Shown piece by piece: positions 1 to 46,825 of a stretch of DNA of 60,939 nucleotides. This stretch comes from Jannaschia seosinensis (GTDB taxonomy: Bacteria; Pseudomonadota; Alphaproteobacteria; Rhodobacterales; Rhodobacteraceae), in assembly GCF_001408515.1 (NCBI RefSeq), contig NZ_CYPR01000173.1, positions 1 to 60,939 of the forward strand. The letters run 5' to 3'. The notes under the pieces are model-generated. The model was not told the origin of the DNA. It saw only the letters and a program-made list of their open reading frames with translations, and ran no database searches. The translations under genes and the position numbers were made by a program. Within the stretch, counting starts at the first letter, position 1, and the number at the start of each line of letters is the position of its first letter.

Positions 1-373
1 GCGAGGGCCTTCAGCCCTTTGGTCTTCGCGTCGATCCTTTCCGTCTTCTCAGCAATCTGCGCCAGCAAGTCCTGGCATTCCGCAATGATCAGCGACGGCA
101 GATCGGACGCGGGATCATCCATCAGCGCCTCGATCCGCTTCAGATGAACAAGGCCGGTCGGGAATACATGGCCGTATTCGTAGAGAACGGCCCGCAGCGC
201 GTTCACGAGCTCGGTGCGCTGATGGACCAGGCGCTCTCGGCTCCGGAACATTACCGCCTTTGCCTGCTGCTCCGCCGTCTTCGGCGCGACGAAGCGCATC
301 TCCGGCTGGCGCGCGGCGATCACGATCGCCTCGGCATCAGCCGCGTCGTTTTTCTGACGCTTGACGAAGGGCC
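1..373. repeat. Terminal direct repeat, left copy
   Basis: These 373 bases are repeated without a mismatch at 60567-60939, by base-by-base reading of both ends. They lie inside an IS110-family transposase gene. The repeat marks where the two window ends overlap, so the non-redundant length is 60566 bp. Confidence 0.97.
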
Positions 374-611
374 TGACGTATTGCGGCGCGATAAGTTTCG
401 CTTCATGGCCGAGCGATTCCATCTCCCGCGCCCAGTAACTGGCGCTACCGCAAGCCTCGAACACGACAATGCACGCGGGCTGCTCGAACATGAACCGCCG
501 GAACTGCTCCCGCGTCAGCTTCTTCCGGAACTTCACCTGCCCCGTCATCGAAGCTCCGTGCACTTGGAAAACTCGCTTTGCCAAGTCCACCCCGATCATC
601 GTATCCTTCAT
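1..611 (-). CDS. IS110-family transposase, N-terminal part (cut by window edge)
   Basis: The ATG at 609-611 (minus strand) opens a frame that runs off the window start. It has the RuvC-like DEDD catalytic set of IS110 recombinases: D9 (GVDLAK), E52 (VFEACG), D89 and D92 (KNDAADAEA). It continues in frame into the copy at the right end; joined across the 373-bp overlap the ORF is 343 codons including the stop, normal for the family. IS110 enzymes recombine DNA guided by an element-encoded structured RNA (bridge or seekRNA). The gene lies on the same strand as the IS630 and glycosyltransferase genes it interrupts. Confidence 0.95.
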   Translation of the reverse strand, partial: MKDTMIGVDLAKRVFQVHGASMTGQVKFRKKLTREQFRRFMFEQPACIVVFEACGSASYWAREMESLGHEAKLIAPQYVRPFVKRQKNDAADAEAIVIAARQPEMRFVAPKTAEQQAKAVMFRSRERLVHQRTELVNALRAVLYEYGHVFPTGLVHLKRIEALMDDPASDLPSLIIAECQDLLAQIAEKTERIDAKTKGLKAL

Positions 612-698
612 CTCGCCGTCCTCCTCGCTGCGTGGCGTTGAACACCACGACCATGGCACATTGCGATGCCGTCTGGGGAGGGCGGCAACCATCCCATC

Positions 699-1368
699 TC
701 CAAAGATGTAGGCCCAGGCGTAGCGGCAGTCCTTCGGTGCCCGCCGGCGCGTCCCCTTGCGGGCCCAGAGACGCGCGAGCGTCCCCTGTTGGCCAACGCG
801 CGCCTCATCTTGGAACCAGACCTCCAGAGGCTTTTCCTTTGCCTCCTCAGGCAGGGCCGTGCGCACCAGTTCTGGAAAGTTTTTTATATAGCTCCTGGGC
901 GTCTGGATCGCTCTGCGGATGACGCGGCCGCGCCGACAGCTTCACGAAGCCGAGCCGGCGGAGGATCGAGCTCATCGTCCGCTCCGCCACGCGAATGCCA
1001 AAGCGGCGCTCCACCACTGCGCACAGATCAACCCGCCGCCAGCGCACAACTCCGTCCATCTCCGGGTCCGGCCCCGCTTCGACGATCGCCGCCAGCTCGC
1101 TCATCTGCTCCGTGCTGAGCATGGGCGTCCGGCCCGGAAGAGGACGATCGATGAGACCCGAAAGCCCCTCCGCATTATAGCGATGAACCCAGTCGCGCAG
1201 GGTCTGCCGATCCATCCCGCAACTCTCTGCCGCCTCCGTCCGTGTCCGCCCGTCGAGCACGAAGGCCAGCGCAAGCATCCGCCGCGACGCCCTTGCGTCC
1301 TTCGCCCGCGCCGCCTCGCGCCGTAGGTCCGCCGCCGACAGCTCCCTACGCGTGATCTCCACCCCCAT
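699..1368 (-). pseudogene. IS630-family transposase, N-terminal part, frameshifted
   Basis: The ATG at 1366-1368 starts a protein with an N-terminal helix-turn-helix/winged-helix region (RTRTEAAESCGMDRQTLRDWVHRYN, read in two pieces: RTRTEAAESCGMDRQT and LRDWVHRYN) followed by the start of the DDE domain. The first frame stops at 847. The expected continuation (PELVRTALPEE, then VWFQDEARVGQ with the first catalytic Asp) is in another frame. The switch is at a run of six A after TAT near 883-890; five A would restore the family sequence. With one base removed and IS110 excised, the gene is 353 codons including stop and ends at 59485. It may be a frameshift mutation or a programmed frameshift; either way this copy is disrupted by IS110. 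Confidence 0.85.
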
Positions 1369-1457
1369 GCTGATCCTCCCTCACATCCCAGAGAGAGTGA
1401 ATCAGCAACTGATACACCTGGGAAGCCCTCACAGAGTCAAAGCCTCGGGCCGTTGGT
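699..1457 (-). mobile_element. IS630-family insertion sequence, 5' part
   Basis: This is the 5' portion of an IS630-family element split by IS110; the 3' portion is at 59475-59874. The outer end carries the 9-bp inverted repeat GCCGTTGGT (1449-1457), matched by ACCAACGGC at 59475-59483. ATCAT follows at 1458-1462 and is repeated at 59470-59474, which reads as a 5-bp target duplication. The rebuilt element is 1159 bp. It sits inside a glycosyltransferase gene. Confidence 0.88.
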
Positions 1458-2050
1458 ATCATTAAATAGTTGCCGGCGTCAAAATGGGTGAGGATCCGGG
1501 TGGGATCGTCCTGCGCGGTCGAAGCTCCCAAAGGCCCTTCGGGGTAAAGGTCCAGCATCAGGGCGCCCATCGAAGCTCGATCCGTGGCGTCAAGCCAGTC
1601 GGTCAGGGCGTGCAGGTTACGGACATCGTGATGGGCGTAGACAAACAGCTCGTCCGCATCGAGGGTCAGGCACCAATGCTCGTGCCCGTACCGCGCCAGA
1701 AGTACCGTCAGCCAATCCATTCCGAACCGGGCTTTTCTGTAGCTGTCGGGCGTGGTCCAGAGCGAGACGTCCGGCTGCGTGGCGAGATAATCGCGCGTGC
1801 CGTCGTCGCTGTCATTGTCGACGATCAGGAAGTGATTGACGCCCATAGCGCGGTGATGGCGCAGGAAGTGGGGCAGGCGGCCCATTTCGTTGCGCATTGT
1901 GGAGAAAACGAGGATGTCAGTGGGGGCGATATCCGCAGTGCGGTCGGCGACGGCGGCGATCTGCCGCCGCTTGGCGAAGGACTGCGCAAGAAGGCGGCGA
2001 CGGCGCCATCGCAGCGTATAGGCCGCGCGAAGCTCCGCCGCGCGGCCCAT
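1458..2050 (-). pseudogene. Family-92-like glycosyltransferase, N-terminal fragment interrupted by IS630
   Basis: The minus-strand start is at 2050, 6 bp after the galU stop. The fragment has the family pattern of a DNDSDDGT motif and a DADE acidic motif (LTLDADELF) and is clearly paralogous to the intact gene at 57929-58939. After residue 196 and the ATGAT target site the frame runs into IS630 sequence. The missing C-terminus is at 59046-59474. Rejoined through one copy of ATGAT, the protein is 338 aa and aligns without a gap over the junction to the 336-aa paralogue (AGNYLMIRQEKLQNLWIQGG against GGNYMFERNPLFWNLWIQGG). Predicted role: cytoplasmic transferase in surface polysaccharide assembly; inactive as it stands. 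Confidence 0.9.
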
Positions 2051-2056
2051 GTCCGA

Positions 2057-29515: not shown

Positions 29516-30000
29516 ATGCTTCGATTTCTGGCACGTCTCCTCGCATCTCCCAAGAAATCCAGACCGGTTCCTCCCGTCAGGGACAAGCCGCTCGCCAGAC
29601 ATGCCCCGAATCCGCCGGAACGACGCCCGGTGGCAATGCCGGTCCGCGCACCTGCGCCCTCGGCAGGAACTGGAATACCTCCTTCCGCCGCCCCGTCGGA
29701 TGAAAAGAAGGTCCTCACGAGAAAATGCTACGTGATCGACGGCGACACGATCGTCATTTCCGGAACGCATATCCGCCTGGCGGGCATCGACGCGCCGGAA
29801 ATGGATCAGCCTTGGGGGCGGAAGGCGAAATCGGCGATGATCGGGTTGTGCAAGGGACAGGTCGTGAATGCCGAGCATGTCGGCGGAGATGATTGCGACC
29901 GTTTCGTCGCCAAATGCACGCTTGCGGACGGAACCGATCTTTCCGCCGCCCTCGTGAAGGAAGGTCTGGCGCTGGATTGGGCGAAGTTCTCCGGCGGGGC
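29516..30000 (+). pseudogene. Thermonuclease (SNase)-domain protein, truncated by IS5-family element
   Basis: Starts at MLRFLARLLASPKK, then a Pro-rich linker and a staphylococcal-nuclease-like domain from about residue 70: CYVIDGDTIVISG, RLAGIDAPEMDQPWG and VAKCTLADGTDLS. The metal-binding Asp and a catalytic Arg of the family can be seen. The reading frame enters the IS5-family left end at 30001 after DWAKFSGG, where homologues continue for some tens of residues. The C-terminal piece is not found elsewhere in the window. It was probably an exported or membrane-anchored nuclease; now likely inactive. Confidence 0.85.
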
Positions 30001-30148
30001 GGCTCTGTTGCACGGAACGCCTGAAGGCCGAGCTTCCCCTTTCCCCCGTGGGGATCAGCCGACAGGTCGCGTGATGGGGATGCCGAGGGCGGTGTAGCGA
30101 TTGAGGATGGCGATGCGGACCTGGAGTTCGGCGGTTTGTCTGTCGAAG

Positions 30149-30190
30149 GTGAGGCATCGAGCCGCCATCGGTCCGAGGCCGATGCCGAAC
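30149..30190. repeat. Palindromic insertion C in IS5 copy 1
   Basis: 42 bp replace the 5 bp present at this place in copy 2 (44041-44045). The ends GGCATCG and CGATGCC are complementary. Direct comparison with copy 2 makes this the best supported of the three. Confidence 0.8.
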
Positions 30191-30664
30191 GGCCATGAGT
30201 TTTTGCCCGAGCAGCTTCATGCAGTTCATCTTGGTCTCGGCGCGGCTTCGGCGGTGGTAGCCGCTCCATCGGCGCCAGATGGTCCGGCCAAGACGCTTGA
30301 TCGCGCGTAAGGCCTCGTTCCTTCCTGCCGCCCCTGGGCTGTGCTTCTTCCACGGCTTGGCGTTGCGCCTGGGAGGGATGACCGCATCCGCGCCCCGGTT
30401 CGCGATGGCATCGCGGCAACCGCGGGTGTCGTAGGCGCCGTCGGCGGTGACGGATGCGATCTCCTCGTCTGCTGGGACCTGGCCGAGCAGGTCCGGCAAT
30501 ACGGGTGCATCGCCCACGCCGCTGCCGGTGATCTCGACAGCACGAACCTCCAAGGTCGCCTCGTCCATGGCCAGATGGACCTTGCGCCAAACCCGCCTTC
30601 GCGCCCCGCCATGCTTGCGCGCATGCCATTCGCCCTCGCCCCGGACCTTGATGCCCGTGCTGTC

Positions 30665-30706
30665 TCTCACCCGGCAGGGCATCACATGGTGATGTCCCGA
30701 GAGGGC
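30665..30706. repeat. Palindromic insertion B in IS5 copy 1
   Basis: 42 bp separate LHLLV from DSTGIKV, which are adjacent in the family. The core pairs GGGCATCAC with GTGATGTCCC, and CTCTC/GAGAG pairs outside it. It shifts the frame. The sequence differs from insertions A and C. Confidence 0.65.
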
Positions 30707-30786
30707 ACAAGAAGGTGCAGCGAGCCGCCGCTGCCCCGGTAGGGCAGCTGCACGGCCAGCGTCCTCTGCCGTCGGCAAAGTGTCGA

Positions 30787-30834
30787 GACTGAGGAGGATC
30801 AGCGAGCCTTCCAGTGGAAGGCTCGCCCGACGAA
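30787..30834. repeat. Palindromic insertion A in IS5 copy 1
   Basis: 48 bp stand where the family has about 6 (between VP and STLCRRQ). The core is a perfect hairpin at 30802-30826 with 11-bp arms GCGAGCCTTCC / GGAAGGCTCGC and a 3-base loop. It brings in a stop codon. Confidence 0.7.
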
Positions 30835-31220
30835 GGGCACCGGCCATTCGAGCCCCGCCAGCTTTAGAAGGCTCGCGACAAATCCCGTCGTCTGGCAAAG
30901 CGGTAAGCCGAAAAGAACCTTGATCGTCAGGCAGGCCTGGATGGCGGCGTCGCTATAGACCGGCTGCCCCCCGCGCTTGCCCGACGGTGCCGCGTGCCAA
31001 GGCGTAGACGGATCGAACCAGACGGTCAGCGATCCACGCTCACGCAGCGCGGCGTTGTAGGTAGACCAGTTCAGGGTGCGGTAGCGGGTCGGGACAGGCT
31101 TGGACATGTCGCCCAGCTACGCCGCTGGACTCGCGATGTGAATCCCAGGCAGGCTCCGTGCAACAAGGCCTCCCAGCGATGGAAGACCCGATATCCGATC
31201 GGTCAGGCAATAGGCAGGCG

Positions 31221-31320
31221 ATGGTATTTCAGGTTCAGGGCAGGACCTGCGGCCATTGCGAGCGGGCGGTCGCGCAGGCAGTCCGGACAGCGATCGAAGA
31301 CGAGGGCTATCGCGTTTCGC
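31221..31320 (+). pseudogene. Copper chaperone (HMA domain) remnant
   Basis: MVFQVQGRTCGHCERAVAQAV is the heavy-metal-associated motif with its CxxC pair. It is followed at once by TAIEDEGYRVSQ, which is the C-terminal strand of such domains. The middle of the roughly 66-aa fold is missing, so this is an internally deleted CopZ-like gene. It lies 50 bp from the IS5 end. Confidence 0.65.
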
Positions 31321-31376
31321 AGTGGGCTACGGCGACAACGAGTTTGTGCCCTGGAAGATTGGCGCGACGCTGTGAC

Positions 31377-31890
31377 ATGACCCACCGTTTTGCCTGCGTG
31401 GCAGAATGCATGGTCGAATTAGCCGAGTCCGGCCCGGCCATCTACCGTTGCAGCTTTGCGGGCGACACGTCCAACGTCGCCTGGTACGCCCGCCGCGCGC
31501 TGCCCGGCAGCTGGGAGGTGGCGTAGCCACGTGCACGGCCCCGACGCCGTCTCGGGCGTGATGGTAGCCTTCATCGAGAGCGAGGGACCGCCACAGACGC
31601 GCTGCGGCGGGTGCCGGGTCGCACCGTCGGGCTCTACATGATTGCGTGTTTCGCTCGACACGAACATCCGGCCCCGCCTCTGGGAGGACTGCCGAGACCA
31701 CCCGTGCGGAGCTGACCGACTGCGCCCAAGCCTGCGATGTGCTACTGCCCAGCTTCGACGAGGAGGCGGCACTCTTCGGGGACAGAACTCCCGAAGCAAC
31801 GCTGGCGCGCTACCGCGAGGCGGGCGCGCGGGTCGTGGTGGTCAAGAATGGTGCCGCGCCGATCCGCGCCGGCGCAGCTCTCGGAGGTGC
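31377..31890 (+). pseudogene. 2-keto-3-deoxygluconate kinase, decayed copy
   Basis: The start MTHRFACVAECMVELAESGP and GDTSNVAWYARRALPGSWEV match KdgK N-termini. The sequence then changes frame at least twice: IATDALRRVPGRTVGLYMI-like sequence near 31590-31640, then SLDTNIRPRLWED, then TTRAELTDCAQACDVLLPSF and DEEAALFGDRTPEATLARYR. It lacks a central block and its C-terminus. It is a relic of a kdgK gene distinct from the intact KdgK domain at 35967, and suggests an older version of the uronate locus here. Confidence 0.75.
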
Positions 31891-32480
31891 TCGCGCGGCT
31901 GGTGACCGAACTGCCGGAGTTCGCCGGCAATATCGTCTATGCCGGCGCCACCCTGCCGTCGCCCGAGGACCTGCCGGCCACCGCCGACCTGATCGCGGCC
32001 CATCAGTCGGAGCTCGCTCGGGCAAGTGCGAGCAGGTGGATTACGCCGGGGCACCGAAGATGGCGCGCCACACGCCGACGCGGATGCCCGGGCGTGTGAT
32101 CTGCTGGCGAAGCTGGAGGGCTGCCTCGCACTTATCGCGGGACTGTCACCGGGCACGCGTGCGCTGACAACCTCCGCGCTGCGCAGCGATGACCCCTTAA
32201 CGAGGAGCGCGCTCGATACCTGCATGACCTTTCTCACCTGGCAGGATCACCTCGAGACAATTAGCGAGGTCCGGTTCCCGCTGGGAGGCTGCAGCGCGGC
32301 CGATTCCCACCAGGCTGCGCAGCGCGGGGCGGCAGGACAGAAACCCGTCGGCTTCTCGCTCTTTGGAGGCGCGCTGAAAGCAGCCGTGGCCGAGCCACCG
32401 TGAAGGGCAGGGCACCGAACGGTCCGGAAGGCTGGCGAGCCGTCAATTTTGCCAACGCGAGTGCATTCGGAGCTGGCGCG
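31891..32480. other. Unassigned scar region before the GntR gene
   Basis: About 590 bp with no intact gene recognised. Two plus-strand frames look protein-like: LARLVTELPEFAGNIVYAGA with ADLIAAHQSELARAS near 31890-32030, and LLAKLEGCLALIAGLSPGT with SALDTCMTFLTWQDHLETIS near 32100-32270. Neither could be assigned to a family. It is probably degraded gene sequence, like the copZ and kdgK relics next to it. Confidence 0.5.
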
Positions 32481-33182
32481 TCAGCTGCTTTCTGCCTCGA
32501 AATAAGTCGGCAGCGTAGCGGCAATCGCCTTCAGATCGCTAAGCACACCGCGCAAATGCGCGCGGATGGAAGCCTCTGCCGCTGCCTCATCTCCTGCGGC
32601 GACGGCTTCCACCACTGCCCGATGCTGCTCGATCAGGTGATCGAGCGGGAATTCTTCGGCGGTCAGGTGCCGCACGCGGTCCATGTGCATCTTGATCGGC
32701 TGGATATGCGACCAGACCCCGGCCAAGCCAGCGGCCGCAGCGAGTGTCTGGTGGAACCGGTCATCGAGCTTGACGAAGACCTCGCCCCCTTCGCTCAGGC
32801 GTCGTGTCTGTTCCGTGATTTGATCGCGCAGGTCCATGACCCATTTCGCGCCCGCCGTGTTCGCGCGCGCCGTGCGCGCGGCGGCGCGGGCGATGTCTGC
32901 TTCCACCGCCTCTCGTACAAACTGCGAGTGAGTGACGTCGCTGAGATTGATCTTGGAAACATAAGTGCCACGCTGGGGGCGGATCTCCACCAGCCGCTCT
33001 GCTCCGAGCTTGATGAAGGCTTCCCGTACCGGCTGCCGAGACATCCCATAGGCGGCGGCAATCTCCTGCTCGGACAAGCGCGTACCCGGCGGCAAGGCAC
33101 CGGTGATGATCCTCGCGCGCAGATCAGCGGTCAGCTGAACACCGATCGGTGCGGTCACTTCGATGGTCGCGAGCCTGTCCAT
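32481..33182 (-). CDS. GntR-family regulator, FadR/FCD subfamily
   Basis: A 233-aa regulator. The N-terminal winged helix (LRARIITGALPPGTRLSEQE, then AYGMSRQPVREAFIKL) covers about residues 18-75. The helical FCD ligand-binding domain follows with likely metal-binding residues (DDRFHQTL near residue 145 and later His residues, HLIEQHRAVV). FCD regulators next to uxuA/uxuB genes commonly respond to fructuronate, mannonate or related uronates. It is divergent from uxuA with 107 bp between them, in which a palindrome lies. Probable repressor of the hexuronate operon. Confidence 0.9.
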   Translation of the reverse strand: MDRLATIEVTAPIGVQLTADLRARIITGALPPGTRLSEQEIAAAYGMSRQPVREAFIKLGAERLVEIRPQRGTYVSKINLSDVTHSQFVREAVEADIARAAARTARANTAGAKWVMDLRDQITEQTRRLSEGGEVFVKLDDRFHQTLAAAAGLAGVWSHIQPIKMHMDRVRHLTAEEFPLDHLIEQHRAVVEAVAAGDEAAAEASIRAHLRGVLSDLKAIAATLPTYFEAESS

Positions 33183-33223
33183 GATCGAGGTTTAGCCGTC
33201 GCTTCCGCCCACCGCAAGCATCA

Positions 33224-33245
33224 AGATACTACCATACTTGTATCT
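33224..33245. promoter_or_regulatory. Candidate GntR operator before uxuA
   Basis: AGATAC-N10-GTATCT, a 22-bp dyad in the 107-bp gap between the divergent GntR gene and uxuA. It is the only AT-rich symmetrical site there. Assignment is by position and symmetry. Confidence 0.5.
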
Positions 33246-33289
33246 GGCCTGCGACTCGGCTACTGATGCCGCAGCGGAGGAGGATCGGA

Positions 33290-34504
33290 ATGCAGCAGAC
33301 TTGGCGATGGTTTGGGCCCATGGACGGTGTTGCCGTCGACGACATGTTGCAGGCAGGCGTCGAAGGCGTCGTTTCCGCCCTTCATCACGTGCCGACCGGA
33401 GCGGTCTGGACTTCAGGGGAAATTCGAAAGCGTCAGGCGGAAATAGCAACCCGGCGCGACGGCACGCCCTCTGGCCTCGCCTGGGAGGTCGTCGAAAGCC
33501 TCCCGGTGTCTGAAGACATCAAGAAGCAGGTTGGCGCCTGGCGCGACCACATCGCCGCATATCAACAAAGTCTGCGGAACCTGGCCGAAGCGGGAATAGA
33601 AGTCGTCTGCTACAACTTCATGCCGGTTCTCGACTGGACGCGCACGGACCTTGCCTGGAGGGTCCGCCACGGCGGGACCGCGATGCGGTTCGACCTTGTG
33701 GATTTCGCCGCCTTTGACATCCACATCCTGAAGAGGCCCGGCGCGGCTGAGAACTTTCCCGGCGCGGTGATTGAGGCTGCTCGCGCACGCTTCGCAGAGA
33801 TGACGGAGGCGCGCAAAACTGAGCTGGCCGGGAACGTGGTGTTCGGCTTGCCGGGCGCGGCAGAGCGCTTCACCCTCAGTGACGTCCGCGCCCATCTCGC
33901 CGAATACGCGGGCCTGTCGCCGGATACCCTGCGCACCCACCTCGTCGACTTCCTTTCCGAGGTTGCGCCCGAGGCTGATCGCCTGGGAATTCGGCTCTGC
34001 TGCCATCCGGACGATCCGCCGTTTCCGCTTCTCGGTCTGCCCCGCGTCATGTCGACCGAGAAGGATTACCGAGCTATGCTCGACGCGGTGGACATCCGCG
34101 CGAACGGGATCACGCTCTGTTCCGGTTCGCTCGGCGCGCGGCCCGATAACGACCTTCCAGGCATGATGAAGCGGCTCGGCGACAGGGTGCATTTCCTGCA
34201 CCTGCGCAACGTCACGCGCGAGACCGAAGGCACGCCCTGCTCGTTCCATGAGGCCGAGCACCTCGGTGGCGGCACCGATATGGTCGCGCTGATCAAGGCC
34301 GCGCTCGACGAAGAATCTCGACGGCGCGCCGCCAATCGCAGCGACGCCTCCATTCCATTCCGGCCCGATCACGGCCAGGACATCCTCGATGATCTGACGC
34401 GTAGGGCGCAGCCGGGGTATCCAGCTATCGGGCGACTGAAGGGGCTTGCCGAGCTACGCGGCATCCTTACCGCTCTTAGCCACCCCCTTGCGAGCTCCGC
34501 ATGA
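33290..34504 (+). CDS. uxuA: Mannonate dehydratase
   Basis: A 404-aa enzyme that dehydrates D-mannonate to 2-keto-3-deoxygluconate. Family features: MQQTWRWFGPMDGVAVDDML at the start, CYNFMPVLDWTRTDL near residue 108, and the Mn-binding CCHPDDPPFPLLGLPRV and HFLHLRNV segments. The start at 33290 follows a strong GGAGGAGG site. It is the first gene of a tight operon; the stop overlaps uxuB (ATGA). The upstream gap holds the GntR operator candidate. Confidence 0.96.
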   Translation: MQQTWRWFGPMDGVAVDDMLQAGVEGVVSALHHVPTGAVWTSGEIRKRQAEIATRRDGTPSGLAWEVVESLPVSEDIKKQVGAWRDHIAAYQQSLRNLAEAGIEVVCYNFMPVLDWTRTDLAWRVRHGGTAMRFDLVDFAAFDIHILKRPGAAENFPGAVIEAARARFAEMTEARKTELAGNVVFGLPGAAERFTLSDVRAHLAEYAGLSPDTLRTHLVDFLSEVAPEADRLGIRLCCHPDDPPFPLLGLPRVMSTEKDYRAMLDAVDIRANGITLCSGSLGARPDNDLPGMMKRLGDRVHFLHLRNVTRETEGTPCSFHEAEHLGGGTDMVALIKAALDEESRRRAANRSDASIPFRPDHGQDILDDLTRRAQPGYPAIGRLKGLAELRGILTALSHPLASSA

Positions 34505-35970
34505 CGCGGCTGACGGCAAAACTTCTTCCTCAACTGCCCGAGGGGGTCCGCCCGGCTTATGATCCTGCGGCCCAAGCGGCAGGAATTTTGCATCTCGGCC
34601 TCGGCGCATTTCACCGTGCCCACCAAGCGTTTTACACCGACGCCGCGCTCGCCCGGGATGGCGGCGACTGGCGCATCCTCGCCGTGAGCCTTCGTTCCAC
34701 CGAGACCGTTGACGCGCTCCGGGCCCAGGATGGCCTTTTCACCCTGGTCGAGCGCGGCCCGCACGGAGATCGCGCGCAGGTCATCGGAGCCGTGGCAGAT
34801 GCGCTGGCCGCGGCGCGCGATTCCCAGGAAGTCCTCGCCGTCTTTGAGCGGCCGGAAATTCGGATCGTGACGCTGACCGTCACCGAGAAAGCCTATGGAT
34901 TCGACCGTGCATCGATGGACATCGAGCCGGGTCACGAAGCGATCGCCGCCGATCTTGCTGCGCCCCAACAGCCTCGGGGGGTCATCGGACTGCTTGTCGA
35001 GGGGCTTCGACGCCGGCGAGCGGCGGACCTTCGGCCGCCGGCAATTCTGTGCTGCGACAATCTGCCTGAAAACGGACCGCTGCTGCGCGCTGGCGTTCTT
35101 GGTTTCGCTCGACGGGTGGACGTCGATCTGGCGGAATGGATCGCGCAGGAGGTGGCTTTTCCAGCTTCAATGGTCGATCGCATCACCCCGGCCACCACTG
35201 ATGAGACCGCCAAACGTGCCCAAGCACTCATCGGCGCGGATGACGCAGCGGCCGTAGAGACCGAGCCCTTTACGCAGTGGGTGATCGAGGAGAACTTCCC
35301 GCAGGGCCGGCCGTCTTGGGAGGCCGGCGGCGCAGTCTTCGTGGCGGATGTCGCCCCGTTCGAGCGAATGAAACTGCGGATGCTCAACGGCGCGCATTCC
35401 CTAATTGCCTATGCCGGATTTCTTGCCGGGCATGCCTATGTCCGTGATGCGATGAGCGACGCCTCTCTGGCAGTTCTGGTCGACCGGCACATTCGGGCGG
35501 CAGCAGGAACAGTGGGACGGCTCGAGGGCATCGATCTCGACGCCTACCGCGCTGATCTTCTCGCCCGGTTCGCCAACCCCGCGATCGCCCATCAGACCTA
35601 TCAGATCGCCATGGACGGAACCGAGAAGCTGCCGCAGCGGATTTTTGCGCCTGCGACCGATGCGTTGACCTCGGGTGCTGATCTCGCGCCCTACGCTTTC
35701 GCCGTGGCGGCCTGGATGTGCTATGCGACTGGCCGCGACGCAAAGGGTAAAAACTACGACCTGCGCGACCCTCGGGAAGATGAGCTGCGTCGTGCCGTGC
35801 TGCACGCAGGGAATGATGCATCGGCCCTCGTCGCCGCGCTGACGGCGCTACCCAGCTTCTTTCCCGTCAGCCTCCGTGACAGCCCGGCCTTCAGGCATGC
35901 GCTCGAAACCCGGCTGGCGGTCATGCTGGATAGGGGAATGCCAGAAGCGATCAGGCGGGAGGCAGCATGA
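34501..35970 (+). CDS. uxuB: Fructuronate reductase / mannitol dehydrogenase family
   Basis: A 489-aa long-chain polyol dehydrogenase. It has the N-terminal nucleotide-binding segment HLGLGAFHRAHQAFYTD (about residues 31-47) and the C-terminal catalytic motif KLRMLNGAHSLIAYAG with the active-site Lys. Placed between uxuA and a KdgK gene, it most likely reduces D-fructuronate to D-mannonate. Mannitol or tagaturonate activity is the main alternative in this family. It overlaps both neighbours by 4 bp (ATGA), so the operon is translationally coupled. Confidence 0.92.
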   Translation: MTRLTAKLLPQLPEGVRPAYDPAAQAAGILHLGLGAFHRAHQAFYTDAALARDGGDWRILAVSLRSTETVDALRAQDGLFTLVERGPHGDRAQVIGAVADALAAARDSQEVLAVFERPEIRIVTLTVTEKAYGFDRASMDIEPGHEAIAADLAAPQQPRGVIGLLVEGLRRRRAADLRPPAILCCDNLPENGPLLRAGVLGFARRVDVDLAEWIAQEVAFPASMVDRITPATTDETAKRAQALIGADDAAAVETEPFTQWVIEENFPQGRPSWEAGGAVFVADVAPFERMKLRMLNGAHSLIAYAGFLAGHAYVRDAMSDASLAVLVDRHIRAAAGTVGRLEGIDLDAYRADLLARFANPAIAHQTYQIAMDGTEKLPQRIFAPATDALTSGADLAPYAFAVAAWMCYATGRDAKGKNYDLRDPREDELRRAVLHAGNDASALVAALTALPSFFPVSLRDSPAFRHALETRLAVMLDRGMPEAIRREAA

Positions 35971-38132
35971 GGCGCCTTGTTGCCATCGGCGAAGTGATGG
36001 TGGAGCTTTGCGGCGGGCAAGAGAACGTTTGGCGCTCGGGGTTCGCCGGAGACACGCTCAACACGCTCTGGTATGCTCGCGCCGGACTCGATCCGGAACG
36101 AGACACGGTCTTCTATGTGACCGCGCTCGGCACCGATAGCATGTCGGACCGCATCCTCGAATTCCTCGCCACCGCCGGGATCGAAACCAGCGGGATCAGG
36201 CGTATCGAGGGGCGGAATCCCGGCCTCTACATGATAGAGCAGAAAGCGGGCGATCGCGCTTTCCTGTACTGGCGCGGGCAGTCCGCGGCACGCTGCTTGG
36301 CCGACGACGAGCATTCTCTTCGAGACGCGCTCCGCGGCGCCGACATGATCTATCTCAGTGGCATCACCCTCGCGATCCTCCCCCCAGCTGCTCGGGAGAG
36401 GCTTCTGACGGTGCTGCAAGAGGCGCGAGCGAACGGCGCCACTCTGGCCTTCGATCCGAATATCCGGCCGGCTCTGTGGGAAGATGCAGAGACGATGCGG
36501 GACGTCCTTTCGCGCATGGCGGGGGCCTCGCAGATCGTCCTGCCGAGCTTCGACGACGAGGCGCGCACGTTCGGCGATGTCGATCCCGCCGCAACCATCG
36601 CGCGCTACCTTTCGGCAGGCGCACAAGAGGTTGCCGTCAAGGACGGCGGACGTCCGGTGAAGCTCTCCGATGGCGCCTCGATAGAAGTGGCCGCGGTTGC
36701 GGAAGTGGTCGATGCGACTGCGGCGGGCGACAGCTTCAACGGCGCCTATCTTGCCGCCCGGCTCGCAGGCCACACACCGTCAGAATCCGCGCGTGTCGGC
36801 ATCTCTACGGCGCAGCAGGTTGTTGCGGCGCCGGGCGCGTGCATCAATCTGAAGTCTCTCGCCGCTTGGCGCCAGAGGGCCGGATCAGAAGGCGACGGTG
36901 TCGCCCGGGGCGCCCGGGCCGCCAGGCACTTCGCCCTGTGCCTGATGCCCGACTGGCTAAAGGTGGCGCTGCCGCCGGATGGCGACCCCGCCCCTGTCGT
37001 GGAGGCCCTCGGGGATGACGATACACCGCAGCGCACGACGCTTGCCCAGTGCCGGACCGTCTTTACCCTTGCTCACCTTTACCTCGTGACGGGTGGGCCA
37101 GAGTTTCTTAAGGCTGCAGGCCGAATTCAGGCCTTCGTCATGCGCCATCTTCGAGACGAAGATGGCGGCTTTCGGTGCGCCGTCGCGACAGACGGCGCTC
37201 TTCTTGACGATCCGGAGACCCGGCTCCGGCGCAGTTACGACCAATCATTCGCGCTTCTCGCGCTCGTGACACTTCGTCGCGCCGACCCAACAGCAGCAAG
37301 CGCAGCCGATGTGGACGCCTGCTGGCGCTTCATCGAAACCTGCCTGATCGAGCACGCAACCGGCGCGCTCTGGGAGGACGACCGCGGCGCAGCCGGCTCC
37401 CTCGTCCGGGGACAGAACCCGCAGATGCACATGCTGGAGGCGCTTCTCCAGGCGCATGAAATGACCGGCGAACCGGTTTGGCTGTCACGGGCCCGATCCT
37501 TCGTGGAAGTCGCTGAGAAGCACTTCATCGACCCCGTCACCGGAGCCGTCCGCGAGTTTGTGGGAGCGGACCTCGCCCCGCTTGATACCGAAGCCGGTCG
37601 CCGACACGAGCCGGGGCACCAATTCGAATGGGCTTGGCTCCTGCGCCGCTACGCGGCCTTTTCAGGGGACCCCGCTCCGATGGCGCATGCAGAGCGGATG
37701 CAAGCTTTTGCAGAAACGCATGGCGTGCGGCCGGCCGGCCCGATGGCCGGCGCTCCGTACGACGCTGTGGATGCAGATGGGCGTGTGACGGAGGAAGGTC
37801 ACTTGCTCTGGCCGCTGACGGAGGCGGGCAAGCTATATGCCGCCCGGGCGCTCGCCGAGCACGACCGTGTCGCCGCAGACCGGGCGCGAGAGATCGCCGA
37901 AACCGTTTTCGGCCGGTATTTCGCGGATGGCGCCGTGGCGTGGGTCAACCGACTCGACAGCCAAGGACAGATACTCTGGGGGGCGGCGCTGAGCCGCCTT
38001 CTCTACCATGTGGCGATTTTCGTCACTGAGGGAGGCCGCGCTGGTCTCTGGAGGCTCAATGGGCAGGACGGGCGGCCCATCGAAGACACGAGCCCGTATC
38101 AATCCGAGGAGGAGAGAAAATGCACTACCTGA
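35967..38132 (+). CDS. kdgK: 2-keto-3-deoxygluconate kinase fused to an AGE-family epimerase/isomerase domain
   Basis: A single 721-aa frame. Residues 1-295 form a PfkB-family KDG kinase: MRRLVAIGEVMVELCGG, GFAGDTLNTLWYAR, FDPNIRPALW and the catalytic base motif ATAAGDSFNGAYLA near residue 250. Residues from about 315 form an (alpha/alpha)6-barrel domain of the N-acylglucosamine 2-epimerase family: SYDQSFALLAL, NPQMHMLEALLQAHEMTGE (about 483), EPGHQFEWAWLLRRY (His about 550) and WVNRLDSQGQ. KdgK would make KDPG; the second domain could interconvert a sugar feeding the pathway, but its substrate is unknown. The stop overlaps dctP by 13 bp. No stop or frame change lies at the junction. The usual situation is two separate genes, so the fusion is unusual. 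Confidence 0.9.
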   Translation: MRRLVAIGEVMVELCGGQENVWRSGFAGDTLNTLWYARAGLDPERDTVFYVTALGTDSMSDRILEFLATAGIETSGIRRIEGRNPGLYMIEQKAGDRAFLYWRGQSAARCLADDEHSLRDALRGADMIYLSGITLAILPPAARERLLTVLQEARANGATLAFDPNIRPALWEDAETMRDVLSRMAGASQIVLPSFDDEARTFGDVDPAATIARYLSAGAQEVAVKDGGRPVKLSDGASIEVAAVAEVVDATAAGDSFNGAYLAARLAGHTPSESARVGISTAQQVVAAPGACINLKSLAAWRQRAGSEGDGVARGARAARHFALCLMPDWLKVALPPDGDPAPVVEALGDDDTPQRTTLAQCRTVFTLAHLYLVTGGPEFLKAAGRIQAFVMRHLRDEDGGFRCAVATDGALLDDPETRLRRSYDQSFALLALVTLRRADPTAASAADVDACWRFIETCLIEHATGALWEDDRGAAGSLVRGQNPQMHMLEALLQAHEMTGEPVWLSRARSFVEVAEKHFIDPVTGAVREFVGADLAPLDTEAGRRHEPGHQFEWAWLLRRYAAFSGDPAPMAHAERMQAFAETHGVRPAGPMAGAPYDAVDADGRVTEEGHLLWPLTEAGKLYAARALAEHDRVAADRAREIAETVFGRYFADGAVAWVNRLDSQGQILWGAALSRLLYHVAIFVTEGGRAGLWRLNGQDGRPIEDTSPYQSEEERKCTT

Positions 38133-39097
38133 CCAAAGGCGCGGTGGCCGCAGTCGCCGCCATCGTCGCCACGCAAGCCGCAGCGCAGGACTACGAGCTC
38201 GCGCTTTCCACATCGCAGCCGCTGACCGACCCGCTCGTCATCGCGATGAAGAGCGCCGAGGAGCAGATCGAGAAACGCTCGGACGGACGCCTTGCGATCA
38301 CCATCTTCCCGAGCTCGCAGCTCGGAGAAGACAACGACGTCCTGGAACAGATCCGCAGTGGCGCGCCGATTGCGGTGCTTGTGGACGCCGGCCGGCTGGC
38401 GCCGTTCCAAGAGGAACTGGGCATTCTTTCCGCGCCCTATCTGGTCGACGACTACACCGACTATGCGAAGATCACCGCGTCGCCGGTGTACCAGGAATGG
38501 GCCGACGAACTTGCAGAGAACTCCGGTCTGCGGCTCCTGAACTACAACTGGTTCCAGGGAACCCGGCAGATGTTCACCAACAAGCTGGTGGAAACTCCGG
38601 AGGATCTGTCCGGGGTTCGGGTCCGCACCATCGACGCGCCCGGCTGGGTGGCGACGATTGACGCAATGGGTGCCACGCCCGCTCCAATGGCATGGTCGGA
38701 AGTCTATTCGGCGTTGCAGCTCGGCGCCATAGACGGTGCAGAGGCCCAGCTGACCGGGGCCTTTGGCATCAAGCTCCATGAGGTGACGACCAACGTGGCA
38801 TTCACCAACCACATCCAGCTGTTCACGGGGCTGGTAACGTCCGACGACTGGTATCAGGCTCTTCCCGAGGACCTGCGCCTTATCCTGGACGAGGAGCTGA
38901 GCGCCGCAGGCGAGGCTGCCACCGCGGCGACTGTGGCGAAGCTTGAGGAAGTGCAAAGGGAAATGGAGGCGGCCGGCGTCGCCTTCAACGAGGTCGACGA
39001 GGAGCCCTTCCGGCAAGCGGTTGACGGCGTCTATGAGGAACTCGGCCTCAGCGAAGCTCGCTCGGCGCTCGAGCCTTACATCGACGGCGACCAGTAA
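38120..39097 (+). CDS. dctP: TRAP transporter substrate-binding protein, DctP family
   Basis: A 325-aa periplasmic binding protein with a signal peptide (MHYLTKGAVAAVAAIVATQA, mature start near AQDYELAL). The conserved TRAP solute-binding features are an Arg in GVRVRTIDAPGW that contacts the substrate carboxylate and the MAWSEVYSALQLGAIDGAEA segment. TRAP receptors bind organic acids including uronates; the surrounding uxa/uxu genes point to a hexuronate. A GAGGAGGAG site precedes the ATG inside the end of the preceding gene. Confidence 0.92.
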   Translation: MHYLTKGAVAAVAAIVATQAAAQDYELALSTSQPLTDPLVIAMKSAEEQIEKRSDGRLAITIFPSSQLGEDNDVLEQIRSGAPIAVLVDAGRLAPFQEELGILSAPYLVDDYTDYAKITASPVYQEWADELAENSGLRLLNYNWFQGTRQMFTNKLVETPEDLSGVRVRTIDAPGWVATIDAMGATPAPMAWSEVYSALQLGAIDGAEAQLTGAFGIKLHEVTTNVAFTNHIQLFTGLVTSDDWYQALPEDLRLILDEELSAAGEAATAATVAKLEEVQREMEAAGVAFNEVDEEPFRQAVDGVYEELGLSEARSALEPYIDGDQ

Positions 39098-39157
39098 AAG
39101 GCTTCGTCCCGGCCTCGATCCGAGGCCGGGACCCATTGCAGGACGGGGGAGGACGTC

Positions 39158-39685
39158 ATGGCGCTTTGGAAGATATTCGACCGGGTGGAGCAGGTGGTGG
39201 CGCTGATCGCGCTGCTCGGCGTCGTTCTTTCGGTCCTGCTCGCGGGCATCGGTCGCAGCATCGGCCTGCCGATGGCCGCGGCGCCGCAATACGCTCAACT
39301 CTCGCTGATCTGGGCGTGCATGCTCGGTGCGGATCTCGCCGCGCGGCAGGGCCGGCACATCCGCGTCACCGCCCTGGCCGACGCAGTTCCGACGCACGTG
39401 CGCGCCGCTCTCTCGCTGGTGATCCTCGTCCTGATCCTGCCTTTCCTCGGCTTCGTCGCCTGGCACGGCTGGTTCCTGGCCATCAACAATTGGGAGCGCG
39501 AGCTTGGCGCCTCGGGCCTCTCCTACGGGGTCGTAACGCTGGCACTTCCGGTGGGTGCGGTACTGCTCGCGACATCCTTCATACGACGCTTGCTCTCCGT
39601 CGGGCTTGCAGGGTTGCTCGACCACTCGGCAGATCCCGATGCACCTGGCGGCAATGCTGCGCGCGACGCGGAGGACCTGCTATGA
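39158..39685 (+). CDS. dctQ: TRAP transporter small membrane subunit, DctQ family
   Basis: A 175-aa protein with four predicted membrane segments (for example VVALIALLGVVLSVLLAGIG at the N-terminus and LSLVILVLILPFLGFVAW). This is the size and topology of DctQ subunits, which pair with DctM for sodium-driven uptake. The ATG follows GGACGGGGGAGGACGTC. The stop overlaps the dctM start (ATGA). Confidence 0.9.
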   Translation: MALWKIFDRVEQVVALIALLGVVLSVLLAGIGRSIGLPMAAAPQYAQLSLIWACMLGADLAARQGRHIRVTALADAVPTHVRAALSLVILVLILPFLGFVAWHGWFLAINNWERELGASGLSYGVVTLALPVGAVLLATSFIRRLLSVGLAGLLDHSADPDAPGGNAARDAEDLL

Positions 39686-40968
39686 TATCCGCCCTGATCC
39701 TGGGCATGGCGCTCCTGCTGATCGCCATTGGCATGCCCGTCGCCTTCGCCATCGGCATCGCTGGCACCTCCTTCTTCCTGCTGCCGTCGACCTTCCTGCC
39801 CGACGCGACCGCAGTGCAACGGATCGTCGCCGTCAGCCAGTCCTTCCCGCTCCTCGCGGTGCCGCTTTTCATCCTGCTCGGCAACCTCATGAACGGCTCG
39901 GGCATCACCAGTCGCCTGATCCAGCTTGCGACAACGCTTGCAGGGTGGATGCGTGGCGGCCTTGCTCAATCCTCGATCCTGCTCAGCGCGCTGATGGGCG
40001 GCGTCTCGGGTTCGGCGGTTGCAGATTCCGCGATGCAGGCGCGAATCCTGGGGCTGCCCATGGTCCAGAAGGGATATAGCCCGGGTTTTGTCGGCGCGGT
40101 TCTGGCTATCGGCGGCCTGATCACTGCAACAATTCCGCCAAGCCTCGGGCTTATCCTCTACGGCTACCTCGGAGAGGTCTCGATCGGTCGCCTGTTCATC
40201 GCAGGCCTCGTGCCGGGCTTTCTACTGACTGTCGCGCTCATGCTGACCACGACCATCGTCGCGCGCCGCCGGAACTACGTGCCTGAGCTTGAATCCCTGC
40301 CAACGGCCCGCGAGGTCTGGCGCGACTTCAAGAACGGCTTCTGGGCTGTTCTCTTCCCGGTCTGGCTGCTGCTGGGCATTCGCTTCGGCTACTTCACGCC
40401 ATCGGAAGCCGGCGGCTTCGCAGTACTCTACGCGCTGGTGGTCGGCATGGTCATCTACCGGGAGTTGACGCCACGCCGTGTGCTCGATGCGTTTGTGCAA
40501 ACGCTGAACGACATCGGCATGATCATGCTGATCATCCTGTTCTCCGGCACCTTTGGCTACGTCATCACCTTTGAGCGGGTGCCGCAGGACATCGCGGAGT
40601 TCACCCTCACGGCCTTCACCAATCCGACGGTTCTGCTCTTCGTGGTCTCGGGCTTCTTGCTTGTGCTCGGCATGCTGGTCGAGGCCACCGTGCTGGTGAT
40701 GCTTCTGACACCGATTCTCGTGCCTGTCGTGACCGCGGCGGGCATCGACCCCGTGCACTTCGGTCTAGTGATGATGACCCTTGTGACCTTTGGCGGCATG
40801 ACGCCTCCGGTAGGGGTTTCGATGTTCACGGTCTGCGGGATCATGGGTTGCTCATACCGCGATTACACGACCGAGGCCCTGCCCTTCATCGCCGCTGTCC
40901 TGATTACCGTGACCATCATGATCCTCTTTCCGCAAATCGTTCTCTTCCTTCCAAACTGGCTGATGTGA
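39682..40968 (+). CDS. dctM: TRAP transporter large permease subunit, DctM family
   Basis: A 428-aa permease with about 11-12 hydrophobic segments. Family motifs include MALLLIAIGMPVAFAIGIAG at the N-terminus, PLFILLGNLMNGSGITSRL, GGVSGSAVADSAM and the C-terminal GGMTPPVGVSMFTVCGI. It imports the substrate captured by DctP. The ATG at 39682 overlaps dctQ. uxaC follows 5 bp after the stop. Confidence 0.95.
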   Translation: MISALILGMALLLIAIGMPVAFAIGIAGTSFFLLPSTFLPDATAVQRIVAVSQSFPLLAVPLFILLGNLMNGSGITSRLIQLATTLAGWMRGGLAQSSILLSALMGGVSGSAVADSAMQARILGLPMVQKGYSPGFVGAVLAIGGLITATIPPSLGLILYGYLGEVSIGRLFIAGLVPGFLLTVALMLTTTIVARRRNYVPELESLPTAREVWRDFKNGFWAVLFPVWLLLGIRFGYFTPSEAGGFAVLYALVVGMVIYRELTPRRVLDAFVQTLNDIGMIMLIILFSGTFGYVITFERVPQDIAEFTLTAFTNPTVLLFVVSGFLLVLGMLVEATVLVMLLTPILVPVVTAAGIDPVHFGLVMMTLVTFGGMTPPVGVSMFTVCGIMGCSYRDYTTEALPFIAAVLITVTIMILFPQIVLFLPNWLM

Positions 40969-40973
40969 ACCCC

Positions 40974-42365
40974 ATGCCTCTGCACCCCGACCGCCTTTTT
41001 CCAGTCGATCAGGCCACCCGCGAGCTGGCCCGGAACATCTTCGCCACTATTGAAGGCGCGCCGATCATCTCGCCGCACGGGCACACCGACCCGCGCTGGT
41101 GGGGAGAGAACGCGCCGTTCTCAGATCCCGCCTCGCTGTTTGTGACGCCCGACCACTACTTGACGCGAATGCTCACAAGCCAAGGAGTGGCATTTGAGGA
41201 TATGGGCATCGGCAGAGGCGCCGAGACCGACCCCCGTGCGATTTGGCGCACCTTTGCTGAGCACTACTATCTCTTCGCGGGAACTCCCTCGCGGCTCTGG
41301 GTGGATCATGCTCTCTCGGAGGTCTTTGGCATCGCTGAGCGACTTTCTCCCCGCACCGCAGACGCCGCCTACGACGCCGTTGCTGAAAAGCTGGCGCAGC
41401 CCGAATACCGGCCTCGGGCGCTTTATGAGAGCTTCGGGATCTCCGCGATAGCTACCACAGACGGTGCTCTCGACGACCTGCGTTGGCACCGCAAGGTGCG
41501 CGACGATGGCTGGAGCGGTCGCGTTCTCCCGACCTACCGGCCCGACGCGGTGATAGACCCGGATCAATCCGATTTCGCCTTGAACCTCGACAAGCTGGGC
41601 GAGATGACAGGATGCGATACCGGCACTTGGCAAGGCTATCTTGACGCCCACCGGAGCCGCCGCGCTTTCTTCAAGGAGATGGGTGCAACCGCGAGTGATC
41701 ACGGCCACCCAACGCCGCGCACAGCCGATCTGCCCGCGGCCGAGGCGCAGGCGCTGTTCGATCGGATTCGCGCGGCCAAGGCAGGTCCCGATGACGCCGA
41801 ACTCTTCCGCGCACAGATGCTCACCGAAATGGCTCGCATGTCGGTCTCGGACGGGCTCGTGCTGCAAATCCATCCCGGCTCGTTCCGCAGTCAATCCGTT
41901 GCGGTGCGCAATGCCTATGGTGCGGATCGCGGCTTCGATATCCCGGTCCCGGTCAGCTTTACCGAGGCGCTTCGCCCGCTCCTCAACGCGGTAGGACTCG
42001 AGCCGGAACTGAAGGTAATTATCTATACACTTGACGAGACGACATATGCGCGCGAACTCGCGCCGCTCGCTGGTGTGTGGCCCTGCCTGCTCCTCGGCCC
42101 GCCTTGGTGGTTTCACGACAGTTATGAAGGGATGCGCCGCTATCGCGCGTCGGTGACCGAGACCGCCGGATTCTGGAACTGCGCGGGCTTCAACGACGAT
42201 ACCCGCGCGCTCTGTTCTATCCCCGCACGCCACGACGTGGCTCGGCGGGTCGACAGCTCTTTTCTCGCTGAGTTGGTCACCAGCCATCGCGTCGATGAAG
42301 AGGAAGCGTTCGCTATCGCCCCGCTTCTGGCGGGCGGGCTCGCGTCAAGGGCTTTCCGGCTCTAA
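40974..42365 (+). CDS. uxaC: Glucuronate (uronate) isomerase
   Basis: A 463-aa amidohydrolase-fold isomerase that converts D-glucuronate to D-fructuronate (and galacturonate to tagaturonate in some family members). Typical parts are MPLHPDRLFPVDQATRELAR, the metal/active-site segment IISPHGHTDPRWW (about residues 29-41), LQIHPGSFRSQS and CLLLGPPWWFHDSYEGMRRY. It is the last intact gene of the island operon. A GTG at 40965 would also fit; ATG 40974 gives the usual family start. Remnants of an IS3 element begin about 50 bp after the stop. Confidence 0.95.
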   Translation: MPLHPDRLFPVDQATRELARNIFATIEGAPIISPHGHTDPRWWGENAPFSDPASLFVTPDHYLTRMLTSQGVAFEDMGIGRGAETDPRAIWRTFAEHYYLFAGTPSRLWVDHALSEVFGIAERLSPRTADAAYDAVAEKLAQPEYRPRALYESFGISAIATTDGALDDLRWHRKVRDDGWSGRVLPTYRPDAVIDPDQSDFALNLDKLGEMTGCDTGTWQGYLDAHRSRRAFFKEMGATASDHGHPTPRTADLPAAEAQALFDRIRAAKAGPDDAELFRAQMLTEMARMSVSDGLVLQIHPGSFRSQSVAVRNAYGADRGFDIPVPVSFTEALRPLLNAVGLEPELKVIIYTLDETTYARELAPLAGVWPCLLLGPPWWFHDSYEGMRRYRASVTETAGFWNCAGFNDDTRALCSIPARHDVARRVDSSFLAELVTSHRVDEEEAFAIAPLLAGGLASRAFRL

Positions 42366-42412
42366 TCATCGTCGATGAACGCCCCGCCGAAGCAGGACTC
42401 GGACTATTCAGT

Positions 42413-42595
42413 GGCAGTGTCGGCGACAGCTACAACAACGCGCTGGCCGAGACGATTAACGGGCTCTTCAACAAGGCCGAGCTCATCCACCGCCTCAGGC
42501 CATGGCGAAGCATTGAAGCCGTGGAATACGCGACGCTGGAATAGGCGGACAGCTCCAACAACCGCCGCCTGCTCGAGCCTATCCTGTCGAGCGAA
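42413..42595 (+). pseudogene. IS3-family transposase (OrfB) C-terminal fragment
   Basis: GSVGDSYNNALAETINGLFN and KAELIHRLRPWRSIEAVEYA are the well-known IS3 integrase-core end, including the catalytic Glu region. A TAG interrupts after TLE, and the expected Trp-Val-Asp-Trp continues as ADSSNNRRLLEPI. Only about 60 codons remain, without element ends. It lies between uxaC and a truncated ROK gene. Confidence 0.8.
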
Positions 42596-44196: not shown

Positions 44197-44549
44197 ACCG
44201 GAAGGGCTTCGATTTTCCAGCAGACACCGCAATCACGCTGAACCCTGGGATCACTATGTTGTCGCCTGAATTCTACACCGACCCAGAACGGTTCGATCCT
44301 TCTCGGTTTTCGCCTAACCGTGCAGAAGACCAGGTGCACAAATTCGCACGGACGCTGTTTGGTGGAGGTGCGCACAAGTGCATAGGCATGCATTTCTCGA
44401 CCTTGCAGGTCAAGCTTTTCATCGCGACCTTGCTGCGCGAGCGTCGAGTGGAGCTGGCGAGCCCAACCGGAACCGAATGGCAACGCATGCCTATCCCAAG
44501 GCCCAAGAATGGTCTTCCGATTGTATTGCATCCCGTCGCCACGCATTGA
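44197..44549 (+). pseudogene. Cytochrome P450, C-terminal fragment
   Basis: About 117 residues of a P450 beginning exactly at the IS5 end. YTDPERFDPSRFSPNR is the region before the heme loop, FGGGAHKCIGMHF is the heme-binding loop with the axial Cys, and the terminal strands follow. The first three quarters of the protein are missing and are not found in the window, so this side of the island is not the other half of the nuclease gene on the left side. Confidence 0.88.
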
Positions 44550-44744
44550 CTGTGCATGCCGACCCGACATGTCCGGCATCAGCGCCGATGGGACACCTGT
44601 TTCTCGAACTGGTGCCCTTTCCCGCGGGCCAGATGATATAAATAGAAGCTCTCTACTTCCCCAGCTCTATAGCTTGGTAGATCCTGCTTGATCGTCCATG
44701 TTGCTCGAAGTTTACCAACGGCCGGGGAGGTGATCTGCAAAGGG

Positions 44745-46262: not shown

Positions 46263-46292
46263 GGGCCAAATTTAGGTGGTAGACTTCAGCTG

Positions 46293-46796: not shown

Positions 46797-46803
46797 GTAT
46801 CCT

Positions 46804-46825
46804 GGCGCCCCACTCCGGGGGCGCC
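46804..46825. terminator. Hairpin between hypothetical gene and integrase
   Basis: Perfect arms GGCGCCCC and GGGGCGCC, followed by GTTCCTT on the plus strand, 8 bp after the hypothetical frame ends. The stem is terminator-like but the U-run is weak. Confidence 0.45.

What the first reader, a model, noticed from the sequence alone, without database searches (positions are those of the whole stretch)
1..2050. The window ends close into a 60566-bp circle through a triple nest: glycosyltransferase, IS630, IS110
Bases 1-373 equal 60567-60939. Joining them on the minus strand gives (a) a complete 343-codon IS110 transposase frame, (b) an IS630 transposase of 353 codons with matching 9-bp terminal repeats, allowing one extra A, and (c) a 338-aa glycosyltransferase with an ATGAT duplication, aligning without a gap to its 336-aa paralogue. 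Three independent frames agreeing make adjacency of the two ends close to certain. Because the circle carries dnaK, mutS and lptABC and no replication gene, it may be a collapsed tandem duplication, an excised circle, or an assembly closed through repeats (for example the IS5 copies).
Basis: seen in the sequence. Interest (0 to 1): 0.8.

Follow-up and report, generated by a model that had tools for sequence, protein, structure and literature searches.

The report
Linear chromosome piece misjoined at IS5
The two ends of this stretch really do belong side by side, but the apparent 60-kilobase circle is most likely an assembly error: the contig was broken at one mobile element and wrongly joined at another, and the DNA is ordinary chromosome of a marine bacterium.

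Summary
Bases 1-373 equal 60567-60939; the contig (61,013 bp) overlaps itself over 446 of 447 bases. Joining the ends gives an intact IS110 frame and a 338-aa glycosyltransferase (GT) with one ATCAT. The repeat alone proves nothing, because the IS630::IS110 nest is multicopy here. But 10 of 11 same-genus (Jannaschia) genomes carry the two GT flanks side by side, so the end join is genuine.

The circle is not. It needs the internal join A(30000)-IS5-B(31171), and four lines of evidence speak against that. (1) The left IS5 flank shares no duplication with B but a 9-bp one (CGGCGGGGC) with own-genome contig C225. (2) A joined to C225 gives a nuclease-like frame that is gapless across the site against four homologues. 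(3) In 7 of 7 relatives fetched, the core block before A runs into C225. (4) B lies inside an island at tRNA-Leu whose other border is own contig C98.

Best reading: a linear stretch C98-tRNALeu-[island...B]-core-GT::IS630::IS110-...A-IS5-C225, broken at the nest and misjoined through IS5. A real IS5-bounded tandem duplication or circle is not excluded; that needs reads.

The parts
1..697 (-). IS110, first piece (5' part of transposase frame, start near 611); continues at 60566 when ends are joined; boundary good to about 2 bp
   Evidence: joined frame 342 aa; Pfam Transposase_20, DEDD_Tnp_IS110; boundary by comparison with the IS630-only copy in C244
59876..60939 (-). IS110, second piece (60567-60939 repeats 1-373)
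698..1457 (-). IS630, 5' part of transposase (ORF 847-1368), split by the IS110; multicopy
   Evidence: Pfam HTH_33 etc.; copies at ends of C55, C231, C137, C101 and in C244
59475..59875 (-). IS630, 3' (DDE) part; multicopy
   Evidence: copies at ends of C14, C23, C43, C46 and in C244
1458..2050 (-). glycosyltransferase (GT), N-terminal piece, with ATCAT at 1458-1462
   Evidence: Pfam Glyco_tranf_2_4
59046..59474 (-). GT, C-terminal piece, with ATCAT at 59470-59474
   Evidence: adjacency of both flanks in 10 of 11 same-genus genomes
57929..58939 (-). paralogous GT of 336 aa next door (start taken at the MGLISS methionine)
29516..30000 (+). 5' part of a nuclease-like (SNase) gene cut by IS5; its 3' part lies in own contig C225 (22083 downward), not at 31171; last 9 bases CGGCGGGGC are the target duplication
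30001..31170 (-). IS5-type element (ends GGCTCTGTTGCAC / GTGCAACAAGGCC), the place of the false or recombined join
   Evidence: Pfam DDE_Tnp_1_5
31171..48547 (.). inner part of a genomic island (lower G+C; sugar-use genes, cut genes); its left edge is not the expected neighbour of 30000
43519..44199 (+). internally deleted inverted copy of the same IS5
47297..48409 (-). integrase-like gene (only DUF6538 matched) at the island border
48548..48565 (.). 18-bp copy of the tRNA-Leu(CAG) 3' end and following bases, probable attachment site; full-length tRNA match in own contig C98:11045-11131
51187..59470 (.). core block that follows tRNA-Leu in relatives and precedes the GT junction

Best explanation
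The window is a linear piece of chromosome (a Jannaschia species), not a circle. Its true order is: own contig C98 - tRNA-Leu - genomic island (rest of island, IS5, then window 31171 to 48547) - window 48.6 to 59.47 kb - GT gene split by IS630 split by IS110 - window 1.46 to 30.0 kb - IS5 - own contig C225. The genome is rich in repeats. The assembler broke the contig inside the nest, where the join is real, and ran through a 1170-bp IS5 from left flank A (30000) into right flank B (31171), leaving C156 and C225 as contig ends inside IS5. Those two choices together make the ends look circular. Shown: GT adjacency in relatives; the A-C225 target duplication, frame and synteny; C98 next to 51.19 kb in relatives. 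Inferred: that C156 is the partner of B (by elimination, weakly), and that the join arose in assembly rather than in the cell.
For: GT flanks adjacent on one strand in 10 of the 11 same-genus genomes (G001-G011 except G005), seen in detail in L113-L117 and L118-L120 (L119 is the same species as L114). IS5: of 9 left/right flank pairings only A x C225 gives a 9-bp identity and A x B gives 0 (about 2e-5 per pair by random sampling of the window). A joined to C225 with one CGGCGGGGC gives a 195-aa frame; 4 of 6 homologous stretches fetched align across the site with no gap at it (L225-L228; L229 partial and ending before the site, L230 no match). In 7 of 7 relatives fetched at A, the window block ending at 28.4 kb (27.2 kb in G006) is followed by C225 22.0 kb read downward. 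C98 directly precedes window 51.19 kb in 5 of 6 genomes where this could be seen: J. faecimaris, J. donghaensis, J. pagri, G002, G006; not G007. C156 and C225 are the only other contigs in the list that end inside a near-identical (99-100%) IS5.
Against: No reads or coverage were available, so a real recombinant A-IS5-B junction is not excluded. C156 x B shows only a 2-bp identity and C156 x the right flank of the 44-kb IS5 copy shows 4 bp, so the C156-B pairing is not settled. The nuclease-like gene and the rest of 28.4-30.0 kb are not in the A-C225 interval of the relatives; the homologues used lie elsewhere in those genomes. G007 does not have C98 beside 51.19 kb. The order difference at 12.9-13.9 kb shows that this genome is rearranged relative to relatives, so synteny alone is not absolute.
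Confidence: 0.85

Rival explanations
1. A real IS5-mediated event: the segment between two direct IS5 copies (C156-IS5-B...A-IS5-C225) is tandemly duplicated, or a circle is excised in part of the culture, so A-IS5-B exists beside A-IS5-C225.
For: The inferred true order places two direct IS5 copies at the borders of the 60-kb segment, the geometry for duplication or excision by recombination; the assembler preferred A-B. A large duplication with an IS481 at its centre is described in the abstract of PMC11708052 (abstract and passages seen).
Against: No positive evidence; ordinary misassembly through a 1.17-kb repeat predicts the same contigs. One border (C156-IS5-B) is only inferred.
Confidence: 0.1
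2. A fixed chromosomal rearrangement between IS5 copies truly links A to B, and the circle is opened at some other wrong join in the contig (for example at the 43.5-44.2 kb IS5 copy or at 12.9-13.9 kb).
For: All 11 same-genus genomes differ from the window at 12.9-13.9 kb; the 44-kb IS5 copy has no target duplication either.
Against: It needs a second error besides the rearrangement. Window 12000-15800 has no second copy in the own genome, and no repeat at the join in the self-comparison, so that join is not repeat-mediated.
Confidence: 0.04
3. A true 60-kb circular replicon (plasmid or chromid).
For: Self-overlapping ends.
Against: The blocks 51.2-59.5/1.46-9.2 kb and 14.8-28.4 kb/C225 are found in the same order in relatives' long contigs, the second one also in the single-contig genome G014. 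The overlap lies in a multicopy nest.
Confidence: 0.01

Closest known systems
Repeat-induced misassembly of a draft bacterial genome
   Same: Contig ends and the suspect join both lie in multicopy IS elements; alternative partners end inside the same repeat
   Different: The break fell on a genuine adjacency and the misjoin inside the contig, so the result imitates a circle carrying housekeeping genes
IS-mediated tandem duplication or excision
   Same: The segment would be bounded by two direct IS5 copies in the inferred order
   Different: No coverage or read evidence; not needed to explain the data
tRNA-Leu integrated genomic island
   Same: 18-bp copy of the tRNA 3' end about 140 bp from an integrase-like gene, full-length tRNA on C98, accessory gene content
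   Different: The integrase-like gene matched only DUF6538; the island is cut into several contigs by IS elements; 48.6-51.2 kb between the repeat and the core block is extra relative to relatives

Membership tests
Circular replicon / excised circle | both ends of the linear contig adjacent | tested here: met
   GT flanks adjacent in 10 of 11 same-genus genomes
Circular replicon / excised circle | every internal join correct, so that no path leads out | tested here: not met
   A (30000) leads to C225 by duplication, frame and synteny; C98 borders the core block in relatives. Indirect evidence, no reads
Circular replicon / excised circle | depth or reads show a separate molecule | not testable with these tools
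   no reads held
IS5-type element at 30001-31170 | DDE transposase, terminal inverted repeats and target duplication | tested here: met
   Pfam DDE_Tnp_1_5; ends GGCTCTGTTGCAC/GTGCAACAAGGCC; 9-bp duplication A/C225. That 9 bp is usual for the IS903 group is recalled
IS630 family | DDE_3 transposase with HTH domain and terminal inverted repeats | tested here: met
   HTH domains in the window piece, DDE_3 in the C244 copy; ATACCAACGG/CCGTTGGTAT ends
IS630 family | TA target duplication (recalled) | tested here: inconclusive
   window copy shows ATCAT twice, C244 copy TCAT; other flanks differ
IS110 family | DEDD transposase with C-terminal Transposase_20 domain | tested here: met
tRNA-borne genomic island | duplicate of tRNA 3' end at the far border, integrase nearby, absent from relatives at that site | tested here: met
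   18 bp identical by eye (BLAST E 0.041 for the tRNA part; 0.003 with neighbours); C98 meets 51.19 kb directly in 5 of 6 genomes
tRNA-borne genomic island | complete tyrosine integrase | tested here: inconclusive
   window gene matches DUF6538 only; a fragment on C156 matches Phage_integrase below the curated cut-off

The most novel reading that the evidence does not exclude
A 60-kb chromosomal segment with dnaK, bounded by two direct IS5 copies, is tandemly amplified or looped out in the sequenced culture, so that the A-IS5-B junction is a real minority or extra junction and not an assembly error.
Probability: 0.1. Interest if true: 0.4.

Novelty: not a real feature. Interest (0 to 1): 0.12.

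Why it matters
It removes a false 60-kb 'circle with housekeeping genes' and shows how to tell: pair target duplications, interrupted reading frames and relatives' gene order across every repeat, not only at the contig ends. It also gives a corrected local map (C98, C173, C225) of this draft genome. If instead the junction were real, it would be an IS-bounded amplification of housekeeping genes.

Tried and rejected
Plasmid reading: rejected by chromosomal synteny. Plasmid collection search with the right-end nest (window 59400-60939): 17 records, none covering 80% of the query; the longest matches are IS110 relatives at 72-78%; of no help. Pairing C156 with B by target duplication: not found, 2 bp. 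Looking for an integrase half in B that would fit the integrase fragment of C156: none recognised by eye in the six-frame printout. Linking C98 to C156 through their shared IS481-like element: rejected as proof, since 98% and not identical and the element is multicopy. Own genome record by name: not among the 80 loci kept by the GTDB scan, which the tool warns may leave it out; of those 80 loci I compared three (L118-L120) with the window, and the others served only in the broad comparison, where they gave weak chance hits at the site (such as L193). Papers: search listings; abstract, outline and passages of PMC11708052; passages of PMC9430514, of no use. The search Jannaschia + insertion sequence + transposase + genome listed 5 papers, none by title on this genome.

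Full report
What was checked. The window is contig C173 of a 253-contig draft genome of 3.83 Mb. The contig is 61,013 bp; the window stops just before an N at 60940. The end identity of 373 bp is exact and goes on to 446 of 447. The joined minus strand gives an IS110 transposase of 342 aa plus stop and a glycosyltransferase of 338 aa. Pfam confirms the kinds of protein, except that the C-terminal GT piece alone matches nothing. The genus is taken from the best named hits (J. faecimaris, J. donghaensis, J. pagri, 84-86% protein identity) and from G010, labelled same genus, whose contig C11 has the length of the J. donghaensis record.

Why the overlap alone is weak. The IS630 carrying an IS110 at the same internal point is multicopy. 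The left IS630-to-IS110 junction is present at the ends of C14, C23, C43 and C46 besides C173. On the right, C55 and the end of C1 reach the junction, and C231, C137 and C101 end inside the IS630 before reaching it. C244 has an IS630 without IS110. Two shorter matches (C71, C204) and one internal fragment (C150) were not followed. By coordinates, both ends of the contig run about 1.5 kb into this repeat.

Why the ends are nevertheless neighbours. Two DNA searches over 20 genomes, one with each GT flank (window 1464-6000 and 53600-59470), place the flanks side by side on the same strand in 10 of the 11 same-genus genomes in each set (all but G005, where the GT itself is not matched). The other 8 genomes, of other families, give weak or no matches and do not test it. 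Five fetched stretches and three named genomes show it in detail; one of the five, G010, is the same species as L119. With one ATCAT kept, the GT aligns gaplessly over the insertion point in the two alignments seen (L113, L116).

Where the circle fails. IS5 occupies 30001-31170. Two other contigs end inside a near-identical IS5: C156 (left part, 427 bp) and C225 (right part, 635 bp) (one search scored 40 of 91 candidates). Among the nine pairings of the three left and three right flanks, only window-left with C225 shows a long identity, 9 bp, CGGCGGGGC; window-left with window-right shows none; the next best is 4 bp, C156 with the right flank of the 44-kb copy. Random sampling gives about 2e-5 per pair for a 9-bp identity. 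Joining window-left to C225 with one copy of the nine bases yields a 195-aa frame whose first 161 residues lie in the window. I fetched 6 of the 8 stretches that one search matched to this gene. Four (L225-L228) align across the site with no gap there, though with gaps elsewhere (for example ALDWAKFSGGAYRHLEPAGIRKKLW against ALDWPKFSGGEYRHLEPPGIRKKLW); L229 aligns partly and stops before the site; L230 gives no match. The Pfam SNase match itself ends before the site, so Pfam does not test it. In 7 of 7 relatives fetched at this place (of 19 same-genus genomes), the window block ending at 28.4 kb (27.2 kb in G006) is followed within about 1-2.5 kb by C225 read downward from 22.0 kb. The stretch 28.4-30.0 kb, with the nuclease-like gene, is not in that interval in the relatives. 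Among same-genus genomes, where A and B matches lie on one contig they are at least about 15 kb apart (nearest G008).

Where B belongs. The block 31.2-48.5 kb is lower in G+C (0.61-0.65 against 0.66-0.68), holds sugar-use genes (UxuA, mannitol dehydrogenase, PfkB kinase) and matches the relatives only in scattered pieces. An 18-bp copy of the 3' end of tRNA-Leu(CAG) and following bases stands at 48548-48565, about 140 bp from the start of an integrase-like gene (the BLAST E-values are modest, 0.041 and 0.003). A full-length 97% match to the tRNA is on own contig C98. In five genomes (J. faecimaris, J. donghaensis, J. pagri, G002, G006) C98 runs directly into window 51.19 kb; G007 does not show this, and the G004 stretch does not reach far enough to tell. 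So B is best read as the inside of an island between C98 and 48.5 kb, and A, on the far side of the core block, should lead to C225.

Conclusion. The simplest reading is a linear chromosomal stretch that was broken at the nest and misjoined through IS5. A real duplication or excised circle bounded by two direct IS5 copies would give the same contigs and needs reads to exclude. PMC11708052 (abstract and passages seen) names recombination between identical IS copies and adjacent deletions as causes of missing target duplications, which would fit the unmatched flanks of the other two IS5 copies.

Limits. The pairing of C156 with B is by elimination and not settled. lptA, lptC and the absence of replication genes were not tested; dnaK was (HSP70), and an ABC ATPase at 52927-53676.

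Noticed in passing
window 59475-60566 joined to 1-1457; contigs C14, C23, C43, C46, C55, C244: An IS630 with an IS110 at one fixed internal point is present at five or more loci, against one IS630 copy read without IS110 (C244); partial matches in C71 and C204 were not followed. The nest appears to move as a unit with a split transposase, perhaps mobilised in trans.
   Followed up: partly
window about 870-900 (minus strand): The IS630 transposase reads in two frames around A(6)C; the same sequence stands in 6 of 6 contigs where the site was found, so it looks like a shared frameshift or slippage site rather than an error.
   Followed up: partly
window 1458-1462 and 59470-59474; C244: Direct repeats of 4-5 bp (ATCAT, TCAT) flank IS630 copies where a TA duplication would be expected from recall; flanks of several other copies look palindromic instead.
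   Followed up: no
G000:C1:41857-43458 (L011): IS110 copy that is about 91% like the nest copy in its first part and identical over the last 910 bases, running into IS630: a recombinant or a mis-extended contig end.
   Followed up: no
window 12.9-13.9 kb: Gene order differs from all 11 same-genus genomes; the blocks on either side lie 63 kb or more apart on one contig in 8 of them and on different contigs in 3, with no repeat seen at the join.
   Followed up: partly
own contig C156 (L057) and many others: The genome is very rich in IS elements: a DDE_Tnp_1_4 element and an IS481-like (rve) element account for nearly all of the 45 matches listed for this contig's sequence.
   Followed up: no
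window 43519-44199: Inverted IS5 copy with internal deletions, flanked by a cut cytochrome P450-like and a cut ROK-like frame (named by eye, not tested); no target duplication.
   Followed up: no
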